DNA from: Euzebya tangerina
Lineage (GTDB): Bacteria > Actinomycetota > Nitriliruptoria > Euzebyales > Euzebyaceae
Reading direction: 5' to 3'
Assembly: GCF_003074135.1 (NCBI RefSeq)
Contig: NZ_PPDK01000002.1
Location: 248,001-312,000, forward strand
Length of the DNA: 64,000 bases
Made by a program: the position numbers and the translations under genes. Shown piece after piece: positions 300 to 10,791 of this stretch. Position 1 is the first letter of the stretch; each line of letters starts with the position of its first letter. The notes under the pieces are model-generated. The model made no database searches and was not told the origin of the DNA. It saw only the letters and a list, made by a program, of their open reading frames with translations.

Positions 300-502
300 T
301 TTGGCTCTGGTGCACGCCCTTGATGTTGGGGTTGCCCCCTTGACGTGGCGGACAACTTCGCGCAAGGTACTCAAGCCGCGTAATTACAGACACGTAACTC
401 CCACAGCCAGAACGTCGCGCCGGGGGAGTCCATCACGGAAGCACACGCGGTCGGAACGCGTTGTACACAACGGTCACGAAGTCGCTGGAGGAATCGCACC
501 AC

Positions 503-3301
503 ATGGTCATCGCACGAGGAGAGACAGGACAGGCACTCCGCACGGTCATCGACGGGGAGAAGGCTGGTCTGAAGTTCGACCGCTACTTCACCGCCGAGGG
601 CGTCCACCCCTACGACGAGGTCCAGTGGGAGCTGCGTGACGCGGTCATCAGCGACTGGAAGACCGGCGATGTCGCGTTCGAGCAGCGTGGGGTCGAGTTC
701 CCGACGCAGTGGTCGATGATCGCCACCAACATCGTCAGCCAGAAGTACTTCCGTGGACCGCTGGGCACCCCGGAGCGCGAGTCGTCGGTCAAGCAGATGC
801 TCGACCGGGTCGCCAACACGATCACCCGCTGGGGTCTGAAGGACGGCTACTTCGCCGACGACCAGTCCGCCGAGGTGTTCAACGTCGAGCTGAAGCACCT
901 GCTGGTCAACCAGAAGGCTGCGTTCAACTCACCGGTGTGGTTCAACTGCGGCGTCGAGGACAAGCCCCAGTGCTCCGCCTGCTTCATCCTCTCGGTCGAG
1001 GACAAGATGAGCTCGATCCTCAACTGGTACGTGGAGGAGGGGACGATCTTCAAGGGCGGCTCGGGCTCCGGGGTGAACCTGTCGGGCATCCGCTCCTCCG
1101 CGGAGACGCTCCGCGGTGGTGGGGAGGCCAGCGGGCCGGTGTCGTTCATGCGCGGGGCGGACGCCTCGGCCGGGACGATCAAGTCCGGTGGGAAGACCCG
1201 TCGTGCCGCCAAGATGGTGATCCTCAACGTCGATCACCCCGACATCGAGGAGTTCATCTGGTGCAAGCAGCGTGAGGAGGACAAGTCCCGCGCACTGCAG
1301 GCTGCTGGGTTCGACATGTCCCTGGATGGCCGTGATGCCGCCAGCGTGCAGTACCAGAACGCCAACAACTCCGTTCGGGTGAACGACGAGTTCATGCAGG
1401 CGGTCGTCGACGATGCCGAGTTCACGCTCAAGGCCGTCACCGACGGATCGGACGTCAAGACCCTCCGGGCGCGCGACCTGATGAACCAGATCTCCGAGGC
1501 CGCGTGGGCCTGTGCCGACCCGGGCATCCAGTACGACACCACGATCAACGACTGGCACACCACGCCGAACGCCGGCCGGATCAACGGCTCGAACCCGTGC
1601 AGTGAGTACATGCACCTGGACAACTCCGCCTGCAACCTCGCGTCGCTGAACCTGCGCAAGTTCGAGAGCGGCGGCGTGTTCGACGTCGAAGCGTTCCAGC
1701 GCGCTGTCGAGGTCGTGTTCACCGCCCAGGAGATCATCGTCGGCAACTCCTCCTACCCGACGGAGAACATCGGCGCCAACGCCATTAAGTACCGCCAGCT
1801 CGGCATGGGGTACGCCAACCTCGGCGGGCTGCTGATGAGCCTCGGTCTGGCCTACGACTCCGACGAGGGTCGCGCCTGGGCTGGTGCGATCACGGCGCTG
1901 ATGACCGGGCACGCGTACCGGACCTCCGCGGAGATCGCCAAGGTCACCGGGCCGTTCGAGGGCTACCACGACGACGCCGACGGCATGAAGCGGGTGCTGC
2001 GCAAGCACCGTGCCGCAGTCGGCACGATCGACCCGGTCAAAGCACCGGCCAACATCCTGCAGGCTGCGCAGGGCTCGTGGGACGACGCGGTTGCGATCGC
2101 CGAGGACTTCGGGGTCCGCAACAGCCAGGCGACGGTGCTCGCACCCACCGGAACCATCGGTCTGATGATGGACTGCGACACCACCGGCATCGAGCCGGAC
2201 CTCGGTCTGGTCAAGATGAAGAAGTTGGTCGGCGGTGGGACGATGAAGATCGTCAACCAGACCGTCCCGCACGCGCTGGCCAACCTGGGCTACCAGCCCG
2301 AGCAGGTCGAGGCGATCGTGGCCTACATCGATGACCACGCCACGGTCGAGGGTGCGCCGGCTCTGCGGCCCGAGCATGTCAGCGTGTTCGACTGCGCCAT
2401 GGGTGAGCGGTCCATCGCCGCGATGGGGCACATCAAGATGATGGCCGCAGCGCAGCCGTTCCTGTCGGGTGCGATCTCCAAGACCGTCAACCTGCCCGAG
2501 AGCGCAACGGTGGCCGACGTCGAGGAGATGTACATCGAGGGCTGGCGTCTGGGCCTGAAGGCCATCGCCATCTACCGCGACAACTGCAAGGTCGCCCAGC
2601 CCCTGTCGATCGACAAGAAGTCCGACCGTGAGGCGGACGACACCGCTGAGGCAGCCGCACCCGCGGCGACCACGGCGGAGGCGGGGATCGTCCGGCGGCG
2701 TCTGCCCAAGCAGCGTCCGTCCCAGACGATCAGCTTCCAGGTGGCCGATGCCGACGGGTACGTCACCGCGGGTGAGTACCCCGGTGACGGGCTCGGCGAG
2801 ATCTTCGTCAAGCTGGGCAAGCAGGGCTCGACGTTGTCCGGGATCATGGATGCGCTGGCGATCAGCGTGAGCCTCGGTCTGCAGTACGGCGTGCCGCTCG
2901 AGGCCTACGTGTCCAAGTTCATCAACACGCGGTACGAGCCGGCTGGCATGACCGATGACCCGGACATCCGGTTCGCGACGTCGCTGACCGACTACATCTT
3001 CCGCAAGCTCGCCATCGAGTACCTGCCCGCCGACCAGCGGCAGGAGATGGGGATCTACACCACGGAGGAGCGGACAGCCGAACTGGACGCTGGGTCCTAC
3101 GGTGCACCCGCGCCCGAGCCCACGGCCGAGGCGGTTGCGGACGCCACCGGTCAGACCGTCCTGCCGGTCGATGACGAGGCCCACCAGATCAACGACATCT
3201 ACGGCGACGCGCCGCTGTGCCTGGCTTGTGGCGAGAAGATGCAGCGTGCCGGCTCGTGCCACGTCTGCCCCGGCTGCGGGACGACCAGCGGCTGCAGTTA
3301 G
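503..3301 (+). CDS. nrdJ: Vitamin B12-dependent (class II) ribonucleoside-diphosphate reductase
   Basis: Class II reductase of 932 residues that makes deoxyribonucleotides using adenosylcobalamin, independent of oxygen. Visible family motifs are the NSPVWFNCG segment with the substrate-site Cys near residue 150, the GGSGSGVNLS loop, the SNPCSEY active-site segment near residue 365, and a C-terminal zinc-ribbon/redox tail (CxxC, then CHVCPGCGTTSGC, about residues 905-932). I chose the ATG at 503 because GGAGGAA lies 9 bases upstream; an in-frame TTG at 461 would add 14 residues with no ribosome site. It diverges from nrdR, and a strong terminator follows. No other reductase genes are in the window. 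Confidence 0.95.
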   Translation: MVIARGETGQALRTVIDGEKAGLKFDRYFTAEGVHPYDEVQWELRDAVISDWKTGDVAFEQRGVEFPTQWSMIATNIVSQKYFRGPLGTPERESSVKQMLDRVANTITRWGLKDGYFADDQSAEVFNVELKHLLVNQKAAFNSPVWFNCGVEDKPQCSACFILSVEDKMSSILNWYVEEGTIFKGGSGSGVNLSGIRSSAETLRGGGEASGPVSFMRGADASAGTIKSGGKTRRAAKMVILNVDHPDIEEFIWCKQREEDKSRALQAAGFDMSLDGRDAASVQYQNANNSVRVNDEFMQAVVDDAEFTLKAVTDGSDVKTLRARDLMNQISEAAWACADPGIQYDTTINDWHTTPNAGRINGSNPCSEYMHLDNSACNLASLNLRKFESGGVFDVEAFQRAVEVVFTAQEIIVGNSSYPTENIGANAIKYRQLGMGYANLGGLLMSLGLAYDSDEGRAWAGAITALMTGHAYRTSAEIAKVTGPFEGYHDDADGMKRVLRKHRAAVGTIDPVKAPANILQAAQGSWDDAVAIAEDFGVRNSQATVLAPTGTIGLMMDCDTTGIEPDLGLVKMKKLVGGGTMKIVNQTVPHALANLGYQPEQVEAIVAYIDDHATVEGAPALRPEHVSVFDCAMGERSIAAMGHIKMMAAAQPFLSGAISKTVNLPESATVADVEEMYIEGWRLGLKAIAIYRDNCKVAQPLSIDKKSDREADDTAEAAAPAATTAEAGIVRRRLPKQRPSQTISFQVADADGYVTAGEYPGDGLGEIFVKLGKQGSTLSGIMDALAISVSLGLQYGVPLEAYVSKFINTRYEPAGMTDDPDIRFATSLTDYIFRKLAIEYLPADQRQEMGIYTTEERTAELDAGSYGAPAPEPTAEAVADATGQTVLPVDDEAHQINDIYGDAPLCLACGEKMQRAGSCHVCPGCGTTSGCS

Positions 3302-3370
3302 CCCCGAATCAGTGCCCGATCTCCGGGCGTGCGTGCGGAGGGGAAGCCGCCCGCAAGCCCGGACCTCACT

Positions 3371-3399
3371 CGACGCCCCGCCATCCTGGCGGGGCGTCG
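3371..3399 (+). terminator. Strong hairpin after nrdJ
   Basis: A perfect 13-bp GC-rich stem (CGACGCCCCGCCA with its complement) encloses a 3-base loop. No T-run follows, as is common in actinobacteria. It separates nrdJ from the small peptide gene at 3547. Confidence 0.75.
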
Positions 3400-3546
3400 G
3401 TCATGCTCGGTGGTTGTGACCGTCGTGCCAGCTGGAGGACCGTCAACAGATCGTCAACTGGACATCGTGGACGCTTGAATCCGGTGCACGAAAGCCCGAT
3501 GCTGGCTGGAAGCAGTCAAACCACTTGAACCCCAGGGGAGCACCAC

Positions 3547-3660
3547 GTGACGTACGAAGCACCGATGATCGAGCACACCGAGGACGTGGTCGGCCTGCTC
3601 GACCTCTGCAAGGTGTTCCCTGACTGGTGCGGCAACGGCGGCGGGGGCCATCACTCCTAG
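3547..3660 (+). CDS. Candidate RiPP precursor peptide, 37 residues
   Basis: Short GTG-started gene with an excellent ribosome site (AGGGGAG at 3534-3540, 6 bases upstream). The product starts MTYEAPMIEHTEDVVGLLDL, an acidic leader-like segment, followed by Cys21, an FPDWC segment with Cys28, and a tail GNGGGGHHS that ends in Ser37. Acidic N-terminus, small Cys/Gly-rich C-terminus and position next to a PqqD-like protein, kinase, nucleotidyltransferase/acetyltransferase, exporter and peptidase are what a ribosomally made, modified peptide precursor looks like. The C-terminal Ser is noteworthy because HprK-like kinases of lasso clusters (paeninodin type) phosphorylate the precursor's C-terminal Ser. 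No lasso signature (Thr two residues before a Gly with a ring acid at 7-9) is clear. Function is inferred; I do not recognise the peptide family. Confidence 0.7.
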   Translation: MTYEAPMIEHTEDVVGLLDLCKVFPDWCGNGGGGHHS

Positions 3661-3670
3661 TCGACGCCTG

Positions 3671-5785
3671 CTAGTCGGCCGTCTCCCGGAGTGACCGCTG
3701 GGTCCTCCGGGTCGTGATCAGGTGGTCGTCCGGTCCTGACGTGCGATAGTGCGGCACCCGGGGTCCTGCCTCTCGGGTGCGCTGCAGCAGCCGTCGAAGA
3801 CGAGGTTCACCCTTGAACCGGCGAGGCGGGGTCGGTGTCGCGACGATCCACGACTCGGACAGCGGGGTGTCGTCCGGGAGCGGCATGGGGTTGGTGGAGG
3901 CTACGAGTACCATGCCGCCAACACCGCGATCCCGCGTGGTCTGGGCCGCCGCGGCCAGCAGCCGCCACGAGTGACCCTGGCCGCGGTGGGACGGCAGGAT
4001 CTCCAGGTGACCCCACAGGTCCCACTCAGCGGTGTGTCCCTGTCGGGCGATGTACCCGATCGGGCCGCCGTGCTCGTCGTCCAAGATCAGCGCACGATCC
4101 TCCACGATTGCCGTCATCACCGGTTGGAGCCGCCGGCTCGAGGGAAGGCGGCCGGGGGTGCTCTTGCGCCGCAGCGCCATGAGGGCATCGACGTCTGAGA
4201 CGGTCGCGACCCGGGTCGGCACGGACGGCGCCTCCCAGGAGAACCCGGCGGGTAGCGCTGCCGCCTTCGAACGGTCTTCATGGAGCCAGCGGCGGCCGAC
4301 GTCGCGGAGCGGCTCGAGATCCTGCTCGAACCCCGCGATCGTGGTCGCACCGCCGCGGTCCAGCAGCCCGCCGAGCTGCTCCGCTGCTCGTGGGTCGATC
4401 AGGACGACGAAGGCCGGCATCACGCCGACGGCGACCCGCTGGGTGACGACCACCGCCAGGACGGCTCCGTCGTCGTCCCGGACCAGCCGGCGGCGGATCC
4501 GCGCTCTCGCTGTCATCGGGTTTGCAGCCGCGGACAGCAAGGGCGTGGCCCGGGGCTGCAGATGGCCCAGCAGGTCGTGGCATGCCCCGCTCGTGGCCAC
4601 CTCCTCGACCGCCATCCCACGCGGGCCGGCAACCCAGGTCAGATAGGCGGCCACCGATGCTGCCGAGGCATCCCCGGTCTTCCAGTCCAGCGCACCGCCC
4701 GGCTGGGTCAGGCCGGGGCGTCCTCGGAGGCGGACCAACTCCGCCCGGGCGGTCCGCAGCAGCGCTCGCGCTGTCTGGGTCAGCTGTGGCCGGCCAGCGG
4801 CCAGCAGCCACCCGGGGAGAAGACCTCGTCGGGCACCACGTCGTCGGGCACCGTCGGCCAGTTGGTTCGCCGCCAGCCACCCCGGCGGCGTCGGCAGGTG
4901 GTCCGCCAGCATGGCCGCACCCTCGGTCCCGAGCACCATCGCGCAGCGCTGCAGGACGGAGGCCGCCAGCGTCGCCACCCCGGTCGCCTCGGCCCGTCTC
5001 ACCACTGCTGCCACATCGGGGGCGGAGCCCTGCATCACCGCATCGATGTCGAGCAGGGCTCGAAGACCCCGCGCCCCCTCCAAGCCGGCATTGACGCAGA
5101 GGTGCAGCAAGGTGTCGATCGGGTCGAAGGTCCGGACCGGATCCTCGCCCACGGTGGTCTCCATGGACCGATCCAACAGACGCCCGCTGTCGATCCGCAG
5201 GCTCGTGCGATCGCGCGCCAGCCCGACGGTGTGGAAGTGCAGGTCCACGTCGAGCAGCCCGCCGCGGTGGCCGAAGGGAACCTCGGCGACGCCGTACTCG
5301 CGGAACCCGTCCCAATTGGTGGCGAGTGGCGCGAACCCGGCATCGGTCAGGCACTCGACCGCTCGGCCGAACGAGTGTCGGTCGACCAGCACATCCAGAT
5401 CGCTGTACACCCGGGACCCGGCATCGCGGTGGTGCAGCTCGGACAGGATGGGGCCCTTGAACACGGCGTGTCGCACCGGCAGGACCTGCCGGAGGACCGA
5501 CACCGTTCGGCGAGCCAGCAGGTGCCGACCGACGCTGTGGCGTCGCACCCGCTCGATCGTTGTCGCCAGATCCGGCGGCAGCTTTAACTCGGCGGCGGTC
5601 GCCCGCGCGCCGAGAACACCCAGCACCCGGTGCTCCGTCGCCGTGGCGATCGCGTGCTCACGTGCGGCCGGTGCGGCGTTCGACCAGGCCCGCCTGATCA
5701 CCCCACCTGGCGTCGCAGTCCGGAGCAACAGCACGAGCAGGTCCCGACCCTCGCGAGACGACGGCTGCTCCTCCTGCCGCTGCAT
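3671..5785 (-). CDS. Nucleotidyltransferase fused to a GNAT acetyltransferase
   Basis: The 704-residue product has two halves. About residues 15-345 match the stand-alone nucleotidyltransferase family (NTP_transf_5): FKGPILSELHHRD leads into GSRVYSDLDVLVD (123-135), whose DLD carries the metal-binding acids. About residues 425-650 look like GNAT: LEILPSHRGQGHSW (RGQGH at 601-605) is the acetyl-CoA loop. Stand-alone relatives of the first half occur in lasso-peptide and other RiPP clusters beside HprK-like kinases. Here it converges on the precursor gene and diverges from the PqqD/ABC operon with 95 bases between. TACTCT lies 6 bases before the ATG with no Shine-Dalgarno, so the transcript may be leaderless. 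A two-activity tailoring enzyme is the likely role; the fused arrangement is unusual. Confidence 0.75.
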   Translation of the reverse strand: MQRQEEQPSSREGRDLLVLLLRTATPGGVIRRAWSNAAPAAREHAIATATEHRVLGVLGARATAAELKLPPDLATTIERVRRHSVGRHLLARRTVSVLRQVLPVRHAVFKGPILSELHHRDAGSRVYSDLDVLVDRHSFGRAVECLTDAGFAPLATNWDGFREYGVAEVPFGHRGGLLDVDLHFHTVGLARDRTSLRIDSGRLLDRSMETTVGEDPVRTFDPIDTLLHLCVNAGLEGARGLRALLDIDAVMQGSAPDVAAVVRRAEATGVATLAASVLQRCAMVLGTEGAAMLADHLPTPPGWLAANQLADGARRRGARRGLLPGWLLAAGRPQLTQTARALLRTARAELVRLRGRPGLTQPGGALDWKTGDASAASVAAYLTWVAGPRGMAVEEVATSGACHDLLGHLQPRATPLLSAAANPMTARARIRRRLVRDDDGAVLAVVVTQRVAVGVMPAFVVLIDPRAAEQLGGLLDRGGATTIAGFEQDLEPLRDVGRRWLHEDRSKAAALPAGFSWEAPSVPTRVATVSDVDALMALRRKSTPGRLPSSRRLQPVMTAIVEDRALILDDEHGGPIGYIARQGHTAEWDLWGHLEILPSHRGQGHSWRLLAAAAQTTRDRGVGGMVLVASTNPMPLPDDTPLSESWIVATPTPPRRFKGEPRLRRLLQRTREAGPRVPHYRTSGPDDHLITTRRTQRSLRETAD

Positions 5786-5880
5786 CCCTGTAGAGTACGA
5801 GGAGGCGGGCTCAGGGCGGCTGTCCAGCTCGTCACCCGCAGCAGAGATGGTCGTCGCGTCGCGGCGGAGGAGGAGAGAAC

Positions 5881-6156
5881 GTGGCCGTGGTGCGTGCTCC
5901 CGGCGTGACCGCGGAACCGTCCGGGGATCGGACGGTCGTGCTGGACGCCGAGGCCACCACGATGTCGACGCTCAACCCGGTCGGAGCACTGCTGTTCGCC
6001 CAGCTGGTCACCCCGCACACCGCCGCCCAGTTGGTGGAGGTGCTGCGCCGTCAATTCCCTGACGTGCCCGTCACCACCCTGGAGAGCGACGTCGACAGCT
6101 TCCTCGCGCAGATGCGGTCAGCTGGTCTGATTGTTCCTGCTGATGCTGACGGCTGA
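5881..6156 (+). CDS. PqqD-like RiPP recognition protein
   Basis: A 91-residue protein with the PqqD/RRE pattern: an N-terminal beta region ending in TVVLDAEATTMSTLNPVGA, then helices spaced as in PqqD (VTPHTAAQLVEVLRRQF) and a final LLxxMxxAGL-type helix (FLAQMRSAGLIVP). PqqD-like domains bind leader peptides and present them to modifying enzymes. The GTG start follows GGAGGAGGAGAG closely. The ABC ATPase start overlaps its 3' end, so the three genes form one operon. It resembles the PqqD-related chaperone described for HprK-related kinase systems, but assignment to that subfamily needs a profile search. Confidence 0.75.
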   Translation: MAVVRAPGVTAEPSGDRTVVLDAEATTMSTLNPVGALLFAQLVTPHTAAQLVEVLRRQFPDVPVTTLESDVDSFLAQMRSAGLIVPADADG

Positions 6157-6913
6157 CGGCGTCTCCAAGACCTACGAGCCACCCACCGGACTGGCGGGCC
6201 TCCTGGTCCGGACGGCGTCGTCCGAGCCCATCCAGGCCGTTCGGGACATCACCTTCTCCGTCGGGCGTGGCGAGATCCTCGGTCTCGTCGGGCCCAACGG
6301 CGCCGGCAAATCGACCCTGTTGCGAATGTGTGCCGGATTGCTGACGCCGACGTCCGGTCGGGTGACCGTGGATGGCCGTGACGTTGCGACCGACCCGGCG
6401 GACGTGCGACGCATCACCGGACTGCTGCTGGCGGACGATCGTGCCCTCTACTGGCGCCTCACGGGCCGCCAGAACCTCCGGTTCTTCGGGGTCATGGCCG
6501 GGCTGAGCGCTGCCGAGGCCCGGCGCCGGTCAGAGCTGCTCATGGAGGAGTTCGGCCTGGCTGATCGGGACCGACGGGTCTTCGGGTACTCCTCCGGCAT
6601 GCGAGTACGGCTGGGACTGGCCCGGACGCTCATCGCCGACCCGGAACTCGTCATCCTGGACGAGCCGACGCGGTCCCTTGACCCAGCCGCCAGCAGCGAT
6701 CTGCTGCGTCGGGTTCGACACCTCCGCGAGTCGGGCCGCGCCGTGGTCCTCTCGACCCATCGGCTGACCGAGGTCGAGGCGGTCTGTGATCGGGTGGTCG
6801 TGCTCGACCAGGGAGCGGCGCTCCTCGCTGCGGCCGTGGCTGACCTGGCGGCGGATGGCTCACCGCCGACCGAGGTCCTGACCCGGCTGCTCGGAGCGGA
6901 GCTGGACCCGTGA
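6143..6913 (+). CDS. ABC transporter ATP-binding protein
   Basis: 256-residue ABC ATPase with Walker A GPNGAGKST, signature YSSGM, Walker B LVILDEP followed by the D-loop region SLDP, and the H-loop STH. It pairs with the ABC-2 type permease directly downstream (4-base overlap), so the complex is most likely an exporter for the modified peptide or gives self-protection. The ATG at 6143 overlaps the PqqD-like gene by 14 bases; a TTG at 6131 is possible but less likely. Confidence 0.9.
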   Translation: MLTADGVSKTYEPPTGLAGLLVRTASSEPIQAVRDITFSVGRGEILGLVGPNGAGKSTLLRMCAGLLTPTSGRVTVDGRDVATDPADVRRITGLLLADDRALYWRLTGRQNLRFFGVMAGLSAAEARRRSELLMEEFGLADRDRRVFGYSSGMRVRLGLARTLIADPELVILDEPTRSLDPAASSDLLRRVRHLRESGRAVVLSTHRLTEVEAVCDRVVVLDQGAALLAAAVADLAADGSPPTEVLTRLLGAELDP

Positions 6914-7737
6914 CAGCGCGTGGCCGACGCAGTGGATTGGGCAGCAGACTGCTGGCCATCGCACGGCGCGACACCGAGACCGAGCTCAGCTATCGCTTCC
7001 GTCTCGCCTCGCTCCTCGTCTCGCCGTTCATCGGGGCGTTCCTCGCGTTCTACATCGCCCGGCTGGTCGGCACCGGCGGGCCGCTTGCCGAGTACGACGG
7101 CACCTACTTCGACTACGTCGTGGTGGGGTTGGCGCTGACCTCCTACGCGGCCCTCGGCGTCAGCGCGTTCACCCAGCGGATCGCTCAAGAGCAGACCGCC
7201 GGCACGCTGGAGGTGCTGCTGGCCGGACCGACGCGGCTGCCCACGCTCCTGGCCGGTGGGTTCATCGTGCCGCTCGGCCTGACGACGATCCAGGTCGTCG
7301 GGCTGATCGGCATCGGGGTCGGACTGGTCGGCACCGGTCTCTCGCCGGGCGCGGTCGTCGGCGCTCTCCCCGTCCTGGTCCTCATGATCCTAAACTTTGT
7401 CGCGGTCGGCGTCGTCGCGGGCGCCGTGACGCTGCTGTCGAAGCGAGGTGATCCCATCTCGCGTGGGTTCTACCAGCTGACGCTGCTGCTCAGCGGTGCG
7501 GTGATTCCGCTCGAGCTCTTCCCGGGCTGGATGCAGCTGATCGGGCGGGCCACACCGGCCTTCTACGGCGTCCGAGGCCTGCGTGACGCCGTGCTCACCG
7601 ACGGCGGAGTCGGAGCGGCGGCTGACGAGGTGCTGATCCTGCTCGGCTTCGCGATCATCACCGTTCCGCTCGCCATCGGCCTCTTCGCGGCGGCGGTCCG
7701 CAGCGCCAAGCGCTACGGCATCCTCGGCACCTACTGA
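6910..7737 (+). CDS. ABC-2 type transporter permease
   Basis: 275-residue integral membrane protein with about six hydrophobic segments (LLVSPFIGAFLAFYIARLV, a long central stretch of alternating hydrophobic helices, and GFAIITVPLAIGLFAAAV near the end), matching the ABC-2 permease fold. It is coupled to the ATPase by a GTGA overlap. Its stop runs 7 bases into the convergent kinase gene. The substrate is unknown; the surrounding genes suggest the peptide encoded at 3547. Confidence 0.85.
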   Translation: MTARGRRSGLGSRLLAIARRDTETELSYRFRLASLLVSPFIGAFLAFYIARLVGTGGPLAEYDGTYFDYVVVGLALTSYAALGVSAFTQRIAQEQTAGTLEVLLAGPTRLPTLLAGGFIVPLGLTTIQVVGLIGIGVGLVGTGLSPGAVVGALPVLVLMILNFVAVGVVAGAVTLLSKRGDPISRGFYQLTLLLSGAVIPLELFPGWMQLIGRATPAFYGVRGLRDAVLTDGGVGAAADEVLILLGFAIITVPLAIGLFAAAVRSAKRYGILGTY

Positions 7738-8702
7738 CCCGCCTGCTGGCCCGCGCGGCTCTCAAGGGCCGACTCGATGGCGGCGCTGGCCCTCGTCAGG
7801 CGCCGGGCCGGATCGGCTGCCAGTCCCAGACGCCAGCCGGGCAGCCTGGCCAGGCCCGCGAGGTGTGGCAACCCGCGACGGAGCGAGTCCGGGTCGTGGG
7901 CGTCCAGATATGACGAGGTCAGGACGGACAGGCGATGGTGGTGCGGGAGGGGCTCCATGCGGCCGTCGCCCTCATCGTGGGCGGCGACGATCAGACCGGT
8001 GACCGCTCGCCGCCCGGTGGCGAAGACGTCGCCCGCGACCATCAGCCGACCACGATGATCCCCGGGCAGCGGCCCCGTCACCGGAAGGGTGTCGCCAGCC
8101 ATGCTGGCCAGGTCCGAGGCGATGGCCATCCGCTTGGGCATCCCGACGGCGGTGGCCGGTCCGCTGTCCGGCCGCTCGACGATGATCAGGTCGTCTGCGT
8201 GGAGGGACCACCCGGCTGCGCACAGGGCCACGGCGATGGTGGACTTCCCGGTTCCCGTCGGCCCGAGCAGCAGCACGGTCTGGTCCGCGCGAGATGCCAT
8301 GGCGGCATGCAGAGCCAGTCGATCGCGGCGCCCCAGGACCCAGGACAGTGAGCTGAACAGCAACTGCCGGACCATCTTCCAGAGCTGGTCGTCGGGCGGG
8401 TTCCCCCCGACGAGGACGACGTGATCATCTGCGGTTGCCCGACCGCCGCTGACGTGGGCCAGGTGAAGCCGCCCGGTGTCACGCCAGAGCTGAACAGGAC
8501 CGTCCACGTGGTCGGGTGGTCGACCGGGCACAGCCGGTGGTCGACGGACGAGTTCGACTTGCAGGACGCGTTCTGCCGAGGAGCGTGGCAGGGCACCGAA
8601 GTGCCACGACGCGCAGCGATGGAGATCCGCATCAGCGGCGCTGATCCTGACCGGCAGGTCCGCCAGGTCCACCGTCCACGCCGCGTGTGTCACTGCAGGC
8701 AT
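7731..8702 (-). CDS. HprK-related kinase
   Basis: 323-residue protein with a C-terminal HPr-kinase-like P-loop domain: Walker A LLLGPTGTGKST (144-155), then the characteristic two-acid segment SLHADDLIIVE (about 167-177). The N-terminal 120 residues are family-specific. This class is not the sugar-phosphotransferase regulator; relatives sit with PqqD-like proteins, and lasso-peptide homologues phosphorylate a Ser in the precursor tail. The precursor here ends in Ser. I set the start at the ATG at 8700-8702, since the longer open frame upstream has shadow-like composition and runs over the divergent peptidase gene. It shares an 89-base bidirectional promoter region with that gene. Confidence 0.75.
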   Translation of the reverse strand: MPAVTHAAWTVDLADLPVRISAADADLHRCASWHFGALPRSSAERVLQVELVRRPPAVPGRPPDHVDGPVQLWRDTGRLHLAHVSGGRATADDHVVLVGGNPPDDQLWKMVRQLLFSSLSWVLGRRDRLALHAAMASRADQTVLLLGPTGTGKSTIAVALCAAGWSLHADDLIIVERPDSGPATAVGMPKRMAIASDLASMAGDTLPVTGPLPGDHRGRLMVAGDVFATGRRAVTGLIVAAHDEGDGRMEPLPHHHRLSVLTSSYLDAHDPDSLRRGLPHLAGLARLPGWRLGLAADPARRLTRASAAIESALESRAGQQAGQ

Positions 8703-8791
8703 GCTAATGAGCTGAGCTGGCTCAGGTCGTTGGTCCAGCGAGTGGGCAGGTCGTCCCGCGGACCCAGCGGCGGCGGGTACGGTCCAGGCAC

Positions 8792-9208
8792 ATGGTGGCA
8801 CCCGACGTGAGAGCTCGTCTCTTCCGGCACCGGCTCGACCGGGAGGCGACGTGGATTGCGACCGACGGCGCGTCGATGGGGCGTCGCTGGCAGGCGGGTG
8901 TGCGCGTGCTGCTCGAGGCGGTCGATCGGGCGCCACGACGGGGGGAGGTCTGGGCCTACTGCACGGCGGAGGGCAAGTTGGTGGTGCATCGCTACGTGCG
9001 GTGCCGCGATGGCCTTCACGTCTTCCAGGGGGACGCGTCCTTCCGGCCCGACCAGCCGGTGCCGACGACGTGGCTGGTCGGGCGTGTCCGCTCGGTCACG
9101 GACGGCACCCGGACCTGGTCGCCACGCCGCCGGCATGTGATGGCCTCGCGGGTTTCGGCGACGGTGCCGGCGATCCGACGTCGCCTACGGCGGGCCATCC
9201 ACGAGTAG
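8792..9208 (+). CDS. S24/S26-type (signal-peptidase-like) peptidase
   Basis: 138 residues with the S26 landmarks: TDGASMGRRW with candidate nucleophile Ser28, RRGEVWAY (box C-like), VVHRYVR with His66 at the position of the general base, and a GDASFRPDQPV segment (80-90) as in GDN/GD boxes. Having His rather than Lys recalls ER/archaeal-type signal peptidases. No membrane anchor is visible, so it is probably soluble. The setting suggests it cleaves the leader from, or trims, the 37-residue precursor, in place of the usual cysteine-protease/transglutaminase-like enzyme. TACGGT 8 bases before the ATG and no Shine-Dalgarno suggest a leaderless transcript. Confidence 0.65.
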   Translation: MVAPDVRARLFRHRLDREATWIATDGASMGRRWQAGVRVLLEAVDRAPRRGEVWAYCTAEGKLVVHRYVRCRDGLHVFQGDASFRPDQPVPTTWLVGRVRSVTDGTRTWSPRRRHVMASRVSATVPAIRRRLRRAIHE

Positions 9209-9218
9209 GGTCTGTGGG

Positions 9219-9392
9219 GATGCGGCGACGCGGACCGAGATCGGTTGCCGGCCCCTCGCGGGTCTGGTCACCACCTTCGGGGAACCCCCGAGGACACACG
9301 CGTCATCTGACGCTCCATCGCATGCAGGTGCTGCACGCGTTGCGTGCGAGTCTGCACACACCACGAAGCTGGTCGGGACACGTCGCCGCGTC
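9219..9392 (+). ncRNA. Candidate retron msr-msd RNA
   Basis: Between the peptidase and the reverse transcriptase lies a 174-base segment bounded by a 12-bp inverted repeat with one G-U pair (9219-9230 with 9381-9392; core GCGGCGACG / CGTCGCCGC), the layout of retron a1/a2 arms. Inside are four consecutive hairpins: 9234-9245, 9277-9291 (TCGGGG stem), 9300-9313 (GCGTC stem) and 9323-9356 (GCACGC-GTT-GCGTGC with an outer TGCAG/CTGCA pairing). Length and position just before the RT fit an msr-msd. The branching G and the exact msd borders could not be assigned. Confidence 0.45.
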
Positions 9393-9423
9393 GCCCGATC
9401 GGCCCGGAGCCCCGGTGCCGTAG

Positions 9424-10791
9424 GTGACCCCGGGGGGAGCAGGGAGGCGGACGGCATTCCAGCGTGCCGTGCGCATCATCGTGGCCGCATTCCTCGACGG
9501 CTCCTGGGAACCGACCGCAATGGCCGCCCGGGCGCACCACGACCTCGGACTGCTCACCGTGCGGAGGGAGATCGACTTCGGAGGGACCGAACCCTACGTG
9601 TGGTTGCACCGAGCCGCAGACCTCGTAGCCGACACCTTCGTGGCACCACCGCGGTCCGAACTCCGTGCGATGCGAGTGCTGGTCGCCGAGCACGCCGCCC
9701 CGGCCATCCTGCCGCTCCTGGACCACCCGATCGCGGGACCGCACACGGGGACCGCGCTCGTGAGTTCTGCGATGAGCGAGCCGCGGTGGCCCGTTGTCCA
9801 CCTGGACACGGTGGGTGACGTGGCTGCTGCGCTCGGCCTCCTCCCGACCCAGCTGTCCTGGTTCGCCGACGTCGCATCGCTGGAGCAGTCGGTGACCGAC
9901 GAGCGTCTGCGGCACTACCGCTACCGGTGGGTGGCCAAGTCGGGCAGCGGGCAGCGGCTGGTCGAGGCGCCGAAGCAGACCTTGCGTCGGGTGCAGCGCT
10001 GGGTCCTGCGCAGGGTGCTCCACAACATCCCAGTTCACCCGGCCACGCACGGCTTCGTGCCGGGACGCTCCGTCCACACCTACGTGGGCCCGCATGTCGG
10101 GCGACGGGTGGTGGTCTCGCTGGACCTCCGCAACTTCTTCACATCTGTGGCGGCGGGGCGGGTGTTCGGCATCTTCAGGGTGGCGGGGTATGCCGACTCG
10201 GTAGCGCACACCCTCACGGGACTGATGACCAATGCGGTCCCCGCTGACATCCTCCGAGGGCATCCGGATGCGCCCCGTGCCCTCCGGTTCCCTCACCTCC
10301 CGCAGGGCGCGCCGACGTCGCCGGCACTCGCCAACCTCGCCGCGTTCTCCCTCGACCGTCGATTGTCCGGGTTGGCCACGGCTATGGACTTGCGCTACAC
10401 GAGGTACGCCGACGACCTGGCCTTCTCGAGCGCTGGCGGGCTGAGCCGTCGAGCACGGCGGCGACTGGTCGTGACGGTCGAGGAGATCGCGCGCGCGGAG
10501 GGCTTCGACGTGAACCGGGCAAAGACGCGGGCAGCCACGGCCGGCCGACAGCAGCGCCTGGCTGGCCGGGTGGTCAACGCCGTCGACAACGCGCCGCGTC
10601 GGGACTACGACCGTCTTCGGGCAGTGCTGCACGACGCGAGCATCAACGGACCAGTCGCCGCGAATCGCGAGGGTCACCCCGCGTTCGAGGCGCATCTCCG
10701 TGGGCGCATCCACTGGGTCGCGAGCGACAGTCCTGCCCGGCAGCGGCGCCTGTGGCAGCTGTTCGACCAGATCGATTGGTCCGAAGGATGA
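9424..10791 (+). CDS. Retron-type reverse transcriptase
   Basis: 455-residue RNA-directed DNA polymerase. RT motifs in order: SGSGQRLVEAPK (173-184), HGFVPGRS (209-216), VSLDLRNFFTS with the first catalytic Asp (231-241), LPQGAPTSPALANL (292-305) and TRYADDLAFSS with YADD at 328-331. The C-terminus keeps the RLAGRVVN and HLRGRIHWV segments of retron-like RTs, and no maturase or integrase domain follows, which argues against a group II intron or retroelement. About 150 N-terminal residues precede the RT core, as in the myxobacterial-like clade of long retron RTs. A structured RNA candidate lies just upstream. The GTG at 9424 has only a distant ribosome site; an alternative GTG is at 9469. No clear effector gene is fused or adjacent. 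Confidence 0.9.
   Translation: MTPGGAGRRTAFQRAVRIIVAAFLDGSWEPTAMAARAHHDLGLLTVRREIDFGGTEPYVWLHRAADLVADTFVAPPRSELRAMRVLVAEHAAPAILPLLDHPIAGPHTGTALVSSAMSEPRWPVVHLDTVGDVAAALGLLPTQLSWFADVASLEQSVTDERLRHYRYRWVAKSGSGQRLVEAPKQTLRRVQRWVLRRVLHNIPVHPATHGFVPGRSVHTYVGPHVGRRVVVSLDLRNFFTSVAAGRVFGIFRVAGYADSVAHTLTGLMTNAVPADILRGHPDAPRALRFPHLPQGAPTSPALANLAAFSLDRRLSGLATAMDLRYTRYADDLAFSSAGGLSRRARRRLVVTVEEIARAEGFDVNRAKTRAATAGRQQRLAGRVVNAVDNAPRRDYDRLRAVLHDASINGPVAANREGHPAFEAHLRGRIHWVASDSPARQRRLWQLFDQIDWSEG

What the first reader, a model, noticed from the sequence alone, without database searches (positions are those of the whole stretch)
3547..3660. A 37-residue precursor ending in Gly-His-His-Ser next to an HprK-like kinase
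The gene was not obvious because of its size, but it has an AGGGGAG ribosome site, an acidic leader and a Cys/Gly core with Cys21 and Cys28. In paeninodin-type lasso peptides an HprK-like kinase phosphorylates the C-terminal Ser of the precursor, so Ser37 is the predicted phosphosite, possibly further modified by the nucleotidyltransferase.
Basis: partly seen in the sequence, partly recalled or inferred. Interest (0 to 1): 0.8.

Follow-up and report, generated by a model that had tools for sequence, protein, structure and literature searches.

The report
Phosphopeptide RiPP precursor, lasso-type leader
A tiny overlooked gene makes a 37-residue peptide that neighbouring enzymes probably bind by its first half, phosphorylate, trim and export, much like a peptide family just described in quite different bacteria.

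Summary
The 37-codon gene at 3547-3660 is real. A leader profile built only from peptides beside related clusters in other genomes ranks it first of all six-frame positions in the 64-kb window (31.3 bits; next 14.9). The genome has no lasso B2 peptidase and no asparagine-synthase cyclase, so it is not a lasso peptide. The set matches the 'linear polyphosphorylated peptides' (LPP) published in 2026 and said to be restricted to Bacillota. The cassette here and its relatives in Acidimicrobiia and one Dehalococcoidia bin form an LPP-like variant with another exporter, another leader end and an added GNAT. Ser37 is the peptide's only serine, so it is the likely phosphosite; a core Ser occurs in 16 of 17 related precursors, at the C-terminus in 6 of 17. 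The two Cys are unique to this peptide. No wet-lab step is shown.

The parts
3534..3540 (+). ribosome-binding-site-like AGGGGAG, 6 nt before the GTG start
   Evidence: sequence; no consensus promoter or terminator found in 3290-9450
3547..3660 (+). precursor peptide gene, 37 aa
   Evidence: leader profile first in the window; tblastn link to L065
3553..3600 (+). leader recognition stretch Y3-L18 (YEAPMIEHTEDVVGLL); by alignment with LppA the cut is predicted after Leu18
   Evidence: alignment of 11 precursors, Y3 and P6 invariant; cut site inferred from LppA numbering, not tested
3601..3657 (+). predicted core DLCKVFPDWCGNGGGGHHS; Ser37 is the only Ser
3671..5785 (-). NTP_transf_5 nucleotidyltransferase (residues 43-285, PF14907 E 9e-30) fused to a C-terminal GNAT domain; 704 aa
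   Evidence: YSDLDVLV motif
5881..6156 (+). discrete PqqD-family RRE, 91 aa; T30, L31, N32 and D70 invariant and F74 nearly so in 12 cassette RREs
   Evidence: PF05402 E 6e-15; NF033530 lasso PqqD best NCBIfam but under cut-off; LppB 9x8z best PDB match of the single sequence; TbiB1 best for the profile; alignment A4
6143..6913 (+). ABC transporter ATPase (DrrA-like)
6910..7737 (+). ABC-2 type permease (DrrB-like)
7731..8702 (-). HprK-like kinase, 323 aa, with Walker A GPTGTGKST, His132 and Asp170-Asp171
   Evidence: PF07475 E 5e-5, under the cut-off; profile of 12 finds HPr kinases 1jb1/2qmh/1ko7 first; residues invariant in 12 of 12
8792..9208 (+). S24/S26 signal-peptidase-like protease, 138 aa, putative leader peptidase; Ser28, His66, Asp87 invariant in 13 of 13
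   Evidence: Peptidase_S24 in 3 of 4 members, not in the window's own; model pLDDT 87.9, nearest PDB folds LexA C-domain and human SPC catalytic subunits

Best explanation
3547-3660 encodes the precursor of a non-lasso, LPP-like RiPP. Inferred order of events: the PqqD/RRE protein (5881-6156) binds the leader through Tyr3-x-x-Pro6-x-Ile8 and presents the peptide; the HprK-like kinase (7731-8702) phosphorylates a core serine, here by exclusion Ser37 at the C-terminus; the NTP_transf_5 domain (3671-5785) adds a sugar or nucleotidyl group to that phosphate and its GNAT domain probably adds an acyl group; the signal-peptidase-like protease (8792-9208) removes the leader, most likely after Leu18; the ABC-2 pump (6143-7737) exports the core DLCKVFPDWCGNGGGGHHS, whose two Cys may form a disulphide. 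Shown here: the gene, the leader conservation, the cassette and its catalytic residues, and the absence of lasso B2 and cyclase. Everything chemical is inferred from LPP, paeninodin and pseudomycoidin.
For: Leader profile with 0 hits in 40 control loci (169,618 bp). The whole cassette (NTase, GNAT, RRE, ABC, ABC-2, HprK, protease, peptide) recurs in L043 and L071; of 18 distinct loci with a cassette-type protease, 15 have a YxxP-leader peptide nearby, all but L069, L070, L132. Protease Ser/His/Asp invariant 13 of 13, matching LppS S29/H68/D93. RRE N32, D70, F74 correspond to LppB N33, D70, F74 (LppB residues). Kinase Walker A/His/DD invariant 12 of 12. No PF13471 in G000 or G328 nor in 10 further cassette genomes; no PF00733 in G000. 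Published precedent with genetics and crystal structures: PMC13381572.
Against: No transcript, mass or activity data. L071, with a related kinase, has a core without Ser, so the target need not always be a core Ser. LPP kinase targets core Ser3 rather than the last residue. The predicted cut after Leu18 lacks the LppA residues F-3, E-2, T-1. The RRE profile prefers a lasso RRE (TbiB1) to LppB. No promoter or terminator consensus was found. None of the three other genomes of the genus has the peptide or this PqqD, so it is patchy.
Confidence: 0.82

Rival explanations
1. It is the precursor of a true (paeninodin-like) phosphorylated lasso peptide whose cyclase and B2 peptidase lie elsewhere in the genome.
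For: Lasso-type leader motif; the RRE's best NCBIfam model is a lasso chaperone and the profile's best PDB match is lasso TbiB1; kinase plus nucleotidyltransferase are typical of paeninodin clusters.
Against: No PF13471 and no PF00733 match in the 98%-complete genome; the core has no Gly/Ala/Ser/Cys start followed by Asp/Glu at 7-9 if cut after Leu18 (that ring rule is recalled); an S26-like protease is in the cassette instead.
Confidence: 0.05
2. It is a RiPP precursor of this cassette, but the kinase does not act on Ser37; phosphate goes elsewhere (Thr, His, Tyr or a second substrate) or the kinase acts on a sugar or carrier.
For: L071 core lacks Ser; C-termini vary (9 of 17 end in neither Ser nor Thr); His/Gly-rich cores recur in window, L064, L071, L043; LPP kinase uses Ser3.
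Against: 16 of 17 precursors hold a core Ser (about 10 expected at 6.5% Ser); LppK rejects Thr and Tyr at its site; paeninodin-type kinases recognise a C-terminal Ser with little regard for the rest (review passages).
Confidence: 0.35
3. Chance ORF with no product.
For: Short, GTG start, core not conserved, no close orthologue.
Against: Leader profile and location, tblastn hit to an independently fetched locus.
Confidence: 0.02

Closest known systems
Linear polyphosphorylated peptides (LPP), Paenibacillus alginolyticus lpp cluster (Popov et al. 2026, PMC13381572; sections 6, 7, 11, 12 and passages read)
   Same: Discrete RRE, HprK-like kinase, NTP transferase, SpI/S26-like leader peptidase with Ser/His/Asp, ABC exporter, short precursors with a YxxPx[V/I] leader and variable C-terminus, no macrolactam cyclase of their own.
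   Different: Here an ABC-2 (DrrAB-like) pump instead of MsbA-like; a GNAT domain; leader end [V/I/L]xGLL in place of HQxIxFET; no Ser at core position 3; not Bacillota; the paper calls LPP restricted to Bacillota.
Paeninodin / pseudomycoidin phosphorylated (and glycosylated) lasso peptides (review PMC8498205, passages read)
   Same: HprK-like kinase, nucleotidyltransferase, discrete RRE, C-terminal Ser.
   Different: Those have B2 peptidase and C cyclase and a threaded ring; neither family was found in this genome.
SynChlorMet cassette (ScmC/ScmD, NCBIfam)
   Same: Kinase and PqqD weakly match ScmC and ScmD.
   Different: Scores far under cut-off; no radical SAM enzyme among the seven cassette genes.

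Membership tests
LPP RiPP | SpI-like protease with catalytic Ser/His/Asp in the cluster | tested here: met
   S28/H66/D87 invariant 13 of 13; fold near LexA and SPC subunits
LPP RiPP | Discrete RRE with Asn and Asp that hold the YxxP motif | tested here: met
   N32 and D70 invariant in 12 of 12; aligned to LppB
LPP RiPP | HprK-like kinase and NTP transferase | tested here: met
LPP RiPP | MsbA-like exporter | tested here: not met
   DrrAB-like ATPase plus ABC-2 permease
LPP RiPP | Precursor motif YxxPxVLxHQxIxFETxxS | tested here: not met
   YxxPx[V/I] met; the HQxIxFET half is replaced by xxRxx[V/L]xGLL
LPP RiPP | RRE falls in the LPP clade | tested here: inconclusive
   Small tree puts LppB with the cassette RREs against four lasso RREs at 86/87, unstarred, long branches; profile prefers TbiB1
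LPP RiPP | Multiple phosphates on one core Ser, linear product | not testable with these tools
   needs mass spectrometry
Lasso peptide (paeninodin type) | B2 transglutaminase-like leader peptidase (PF13471) | tested here: not met
   no match in G000
Lasso peptide (paeninodin type) | Macrolactam cyclase (PF00733) | tested here: not met
   no match in G000 at E 1e-5; control genomes ring in 10 of 14
Lasso peptide (paeninodin type) | RRE-binding [Y/W]xxPx[L/V/I] leader | tested here: met
   Y3, P6, I8

The most novel reading that the evidence does not exclude
An independent, unnamed class of non-lasso phospho-RiPPs in Actinomycetota and Chloroflexota, in which kinase, nucleotidyltransferase and GNAT together build a phosphate-anchored cap on short, often Gly/His-rich cores (in this genome on the C-terminal Ser), freed by a signal-peptidase-like enzyme. 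The thousands of 'lasso' RREs without cyclase that RRE-Finder set aside as possible false positives would partly belong to such classes.
Probability: 0.35. Interest if true: 0.75.

Novelty: new variant of a known kind. Interest (0 to 1): 0.6.

Why it matters
It carries a peptide class published in 2026 as restricted to Bacillota into Actinomycetota and Chloroflexota, and it gives a small set of precursors (several with a single core Ser) with which the kinase's site rule can be tested. It may also explain some lasso-type RREs that lack lasso enzymes, and shows that precursors of this kind are easily missed because they are 30-40 codons long.

Tried and rejected
Lasso peptide: rejected. Conserved Cys pair or disulphide family: rejected, Cys in 1 of 17 cores. 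Direct search of 60 relatives with the peptide: nothing informative; the PqqD search in the same genomes gave only weak, generic PqqD hits. Reverse transcriptase and NrdJ as cluster members: rejected. The RT was in my tblastn sets and hit none of the cassette loci scanned; the one NrdJ hit (L043, 27%) lies over 5 kb from that cassette. PDB phmmer with the protease alone gave only gamma-tubulin at E 0.14, chance. Profile of the protease in the PDB: signal peptidase I only at E 0.35, hence the fold model. L134-L136 (protease E about 1e-13 to 1e-15) were looked at and set aside: no leader peptide, weak HprK. Counts: the 17 precursors are 19 less the two of L074, close to L072; the multi-repeat precursors of L054, L055, L057 and the arrays of L129-L131 were not put into that count, nor were a second candidate in L059 and a further repeat in L068. 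The kinase fold, the tree position of the RRE and the organism's name are not settled.

Full report
OBSERVATION. The ORF 3547-3660 is present as described: GTG start, AGGGGAG six bases before, 37 residues, Cys21, Cys28 and Ser37, which is the only Ser. It lies between NrdJ (461-3301) and the convergent 704-aa NTP_transf_5/GNAT gene, whose stop is 10 nt away. Pfam and NCBIfam know no family for it.

THE CASSETTE. Around it lie NTP_transf_5+GNAT (3671-5785, -), PqqD/RRE (5881-6156, +), ABC ATPase (6143-6913, +), ABC-2 permease (6910-7737, +), HprK-like kinase (7731-8702, -) and a 138-aa protein (8792-9208, +) without a credible Pfam hit of its own. Relatives of it match Peptidase_S24 (3 of 4 members); in 13 aligned relatives Ser28, His66 and Asp87 are invariant; an AlphaFold2 model (mean pLDDT 87.9) is nearest to LexA C-domains and human signal-peptidase-complex subunits, though no Foldseek match passes E 0.001 (best 2.5e-3). 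I read it as a signal-peptidase-type leader peptidase.

RELATED LOCI. A kinase search hit 3 of 396 genomes drawn from the phylum, own genome included; one, G328, carries the complete cassette with a 35-aa peptide MKYSAPKIKTRSAVKGLMGSWGGGGGHNGGGGGYR in the same neighbourhood. Searching its class with that kinase hit 7 of 296 genomes. A scan of species genomes with the protease gave 12 loci: Acidimicrobiia and other Actinomycetota, Aquihabitans sp. G128, and one Dehalococcoidia bin. A protease profile then hit 10 of 395 genomes of that class strongly (E below 1e-30; 39 of 395 at 1e-6) and 3 of 396 of the phylum draw (20 of 396 at 1e-6), with a wide gap between the strong hits and the rest. In all I count 18 distinct loci with a cassette-type protease, records that returned twice being taken as one by identity or equal contig length; 15 have a nearby small ORF with a Y-x-x-P leader, L069, L070 and L132 do not. 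Several loci are ends of contigs.

IS THE GENE REAL? A 17-column profile from 15 leaders of other loci ranks this peptide first in the window at 31.3 bits, next 14.9, random maximum 14.9. In leave-one-locus-out scans 16 of 23 loci give at least one hit of 20 bits or more; L064, L069, L070, L129, L130, L131 and L132 give none (L129-L131 use a leader one residue shorter; L064 scores under 20), and 40 control loci (169,618 bp) give none. Since the leaders were picked by a Y..P.[hydrophobic] pattern, I removed those three columns: still first of 100,897 positions but only 16.1 against 14.6. Plain tblastn gives 63% over 19 residues to two peptides in L065, a locus fetched by the protease. In the close pair L072/L074 the 16-residue leader of each of two precursors differs by 2 synonymous and 1 non-synonymous codon.

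ANATOMY. Leader consensus: Y-[E/S/A/Q]-x-P-x-[I/V]-x-x-[R/K/H/T]-x-x-[V/L/I]-x-[G/A]-x-[L/M]. Lining Tyr3 and Pro6 up with LppA Y-16 and P-13 puts the cut after Leu18 and leaves DLCKVFPDWCGNGGGGHHS; this is inference. Cores vary in length (5-26) and sequence; Gly- and His-rich ones recur (window, L064, L071, L043). Of 17 precursors (L074 left out as a near copy), 16 have a core Ser, 6 end in Ser (P 0.0014 against Ser frequency in the cores), 2 in Thr, 9 in neither, and only the window's has Cys. In the window, L064 and L067 the last residue is the only core Ser. L071 has none, which speaks against a universal rule.

LITERATURE. PMC13381572 (Nat Commun, May 2026; sections 6, 7, 11, 12 and passages read) describes linear polyphosphorylated peptides: discrete RRE LppB, HprK-like LppK, NTP transferase LppN, SpI-like peptidase LppS (S29, H68, D93), exporter LppD, precursors with YxxPxVLxHQxIxFETxxS leaders; LppK puts several phosphates on core Ser3 and not on Thr or Tyr there; LppS needs LppB. 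It states that LPP are restricted to Bacillota. [quoted passage not shown] RRE-Finder (PMC7470986, passages) notes about 8,000 lasso-type discrete RREs, only about 4,000 with lasso enzymes. Searches for a report of this cassette outside Bacillota (listings and starts of abstracts) found none in the held library; the LPP paper's supplement was not available.

TESTS OF CLASS. The genome has neither PF13471 nor PF00733, so it cannot be a lasso peptide unless both lie in the missing about 2%. PF13471 was also absent from 10 of 10 further cassette genomes. AsnB-like genes are common in some of those genomes, and L065 has one next to its precursors together with an AMP ligase; such loci may differ in chemistry. 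The window RRE alone matches LppB best in the PDB (E 1.2e-4), but the 12-member profile matches lasso TbiB1 best, then PbaB1 and LppB; a small tree places LppB with the cassette RREs without firm support.

VERDICT. A real, small RiPP precursor of an LPP-like cassette in Actinomycetota; Ser37 as phosphosite is plausible (about 0.55, my estimate) and directly testable; the Cys pair is private to this peptide.

Noticed in passing
window 9424-10791 (+): Reverse transcriptase of the retron/abortive-defence kind (PADLOC RT_other E 1.6e-147, RT_outgroup retron; NCBIfam retron St85 under cut-off), next to the cassette but not part of it.
   Followed up: partly
L129, L130, L131 (genus g289): Arrays of about 2 to 8 small precursors of the type MKYTTPAVTKTALAGALGE..CWDGSIYYC beside PqqD and the S26-like protease (in L130 also a LytR_cpsA_psr protein); no HprK hit nearby.
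   Followed up: partly
L054, L055, L057: HprK-like kinases beside ORFs made of tandem leader+core repeats (YERPRVEDRTTVTEPLN...TPAWR), up to ten motif hits in one locus.
   Followed up: no
L065:11006-15478: In a Dehalococcoidia bin the two precursors are followed by a lipid-A-acyltransferase-like protein, an AMP-binding ligase and an asparagine-synthase-like protein.
   Followed up: no
L068 (minus strand, about 2102-1830): One ORF with two successive leader+core units, and a further single precursor at about 1714.
   Followed up: no
window 3671-5785: NTase and GNAT are one 704-aa ORF here; in L064 they are two ORFs in the same frame and in L043 and L071 separate genes.
   Followed up: partly
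G000, whole genome: The genus (four held species, one of two contigs and 6.4 Mb) may be Euzebya; this is recalled and untested. Peptide and PqqD were not found in the other three.
   Followed up: no
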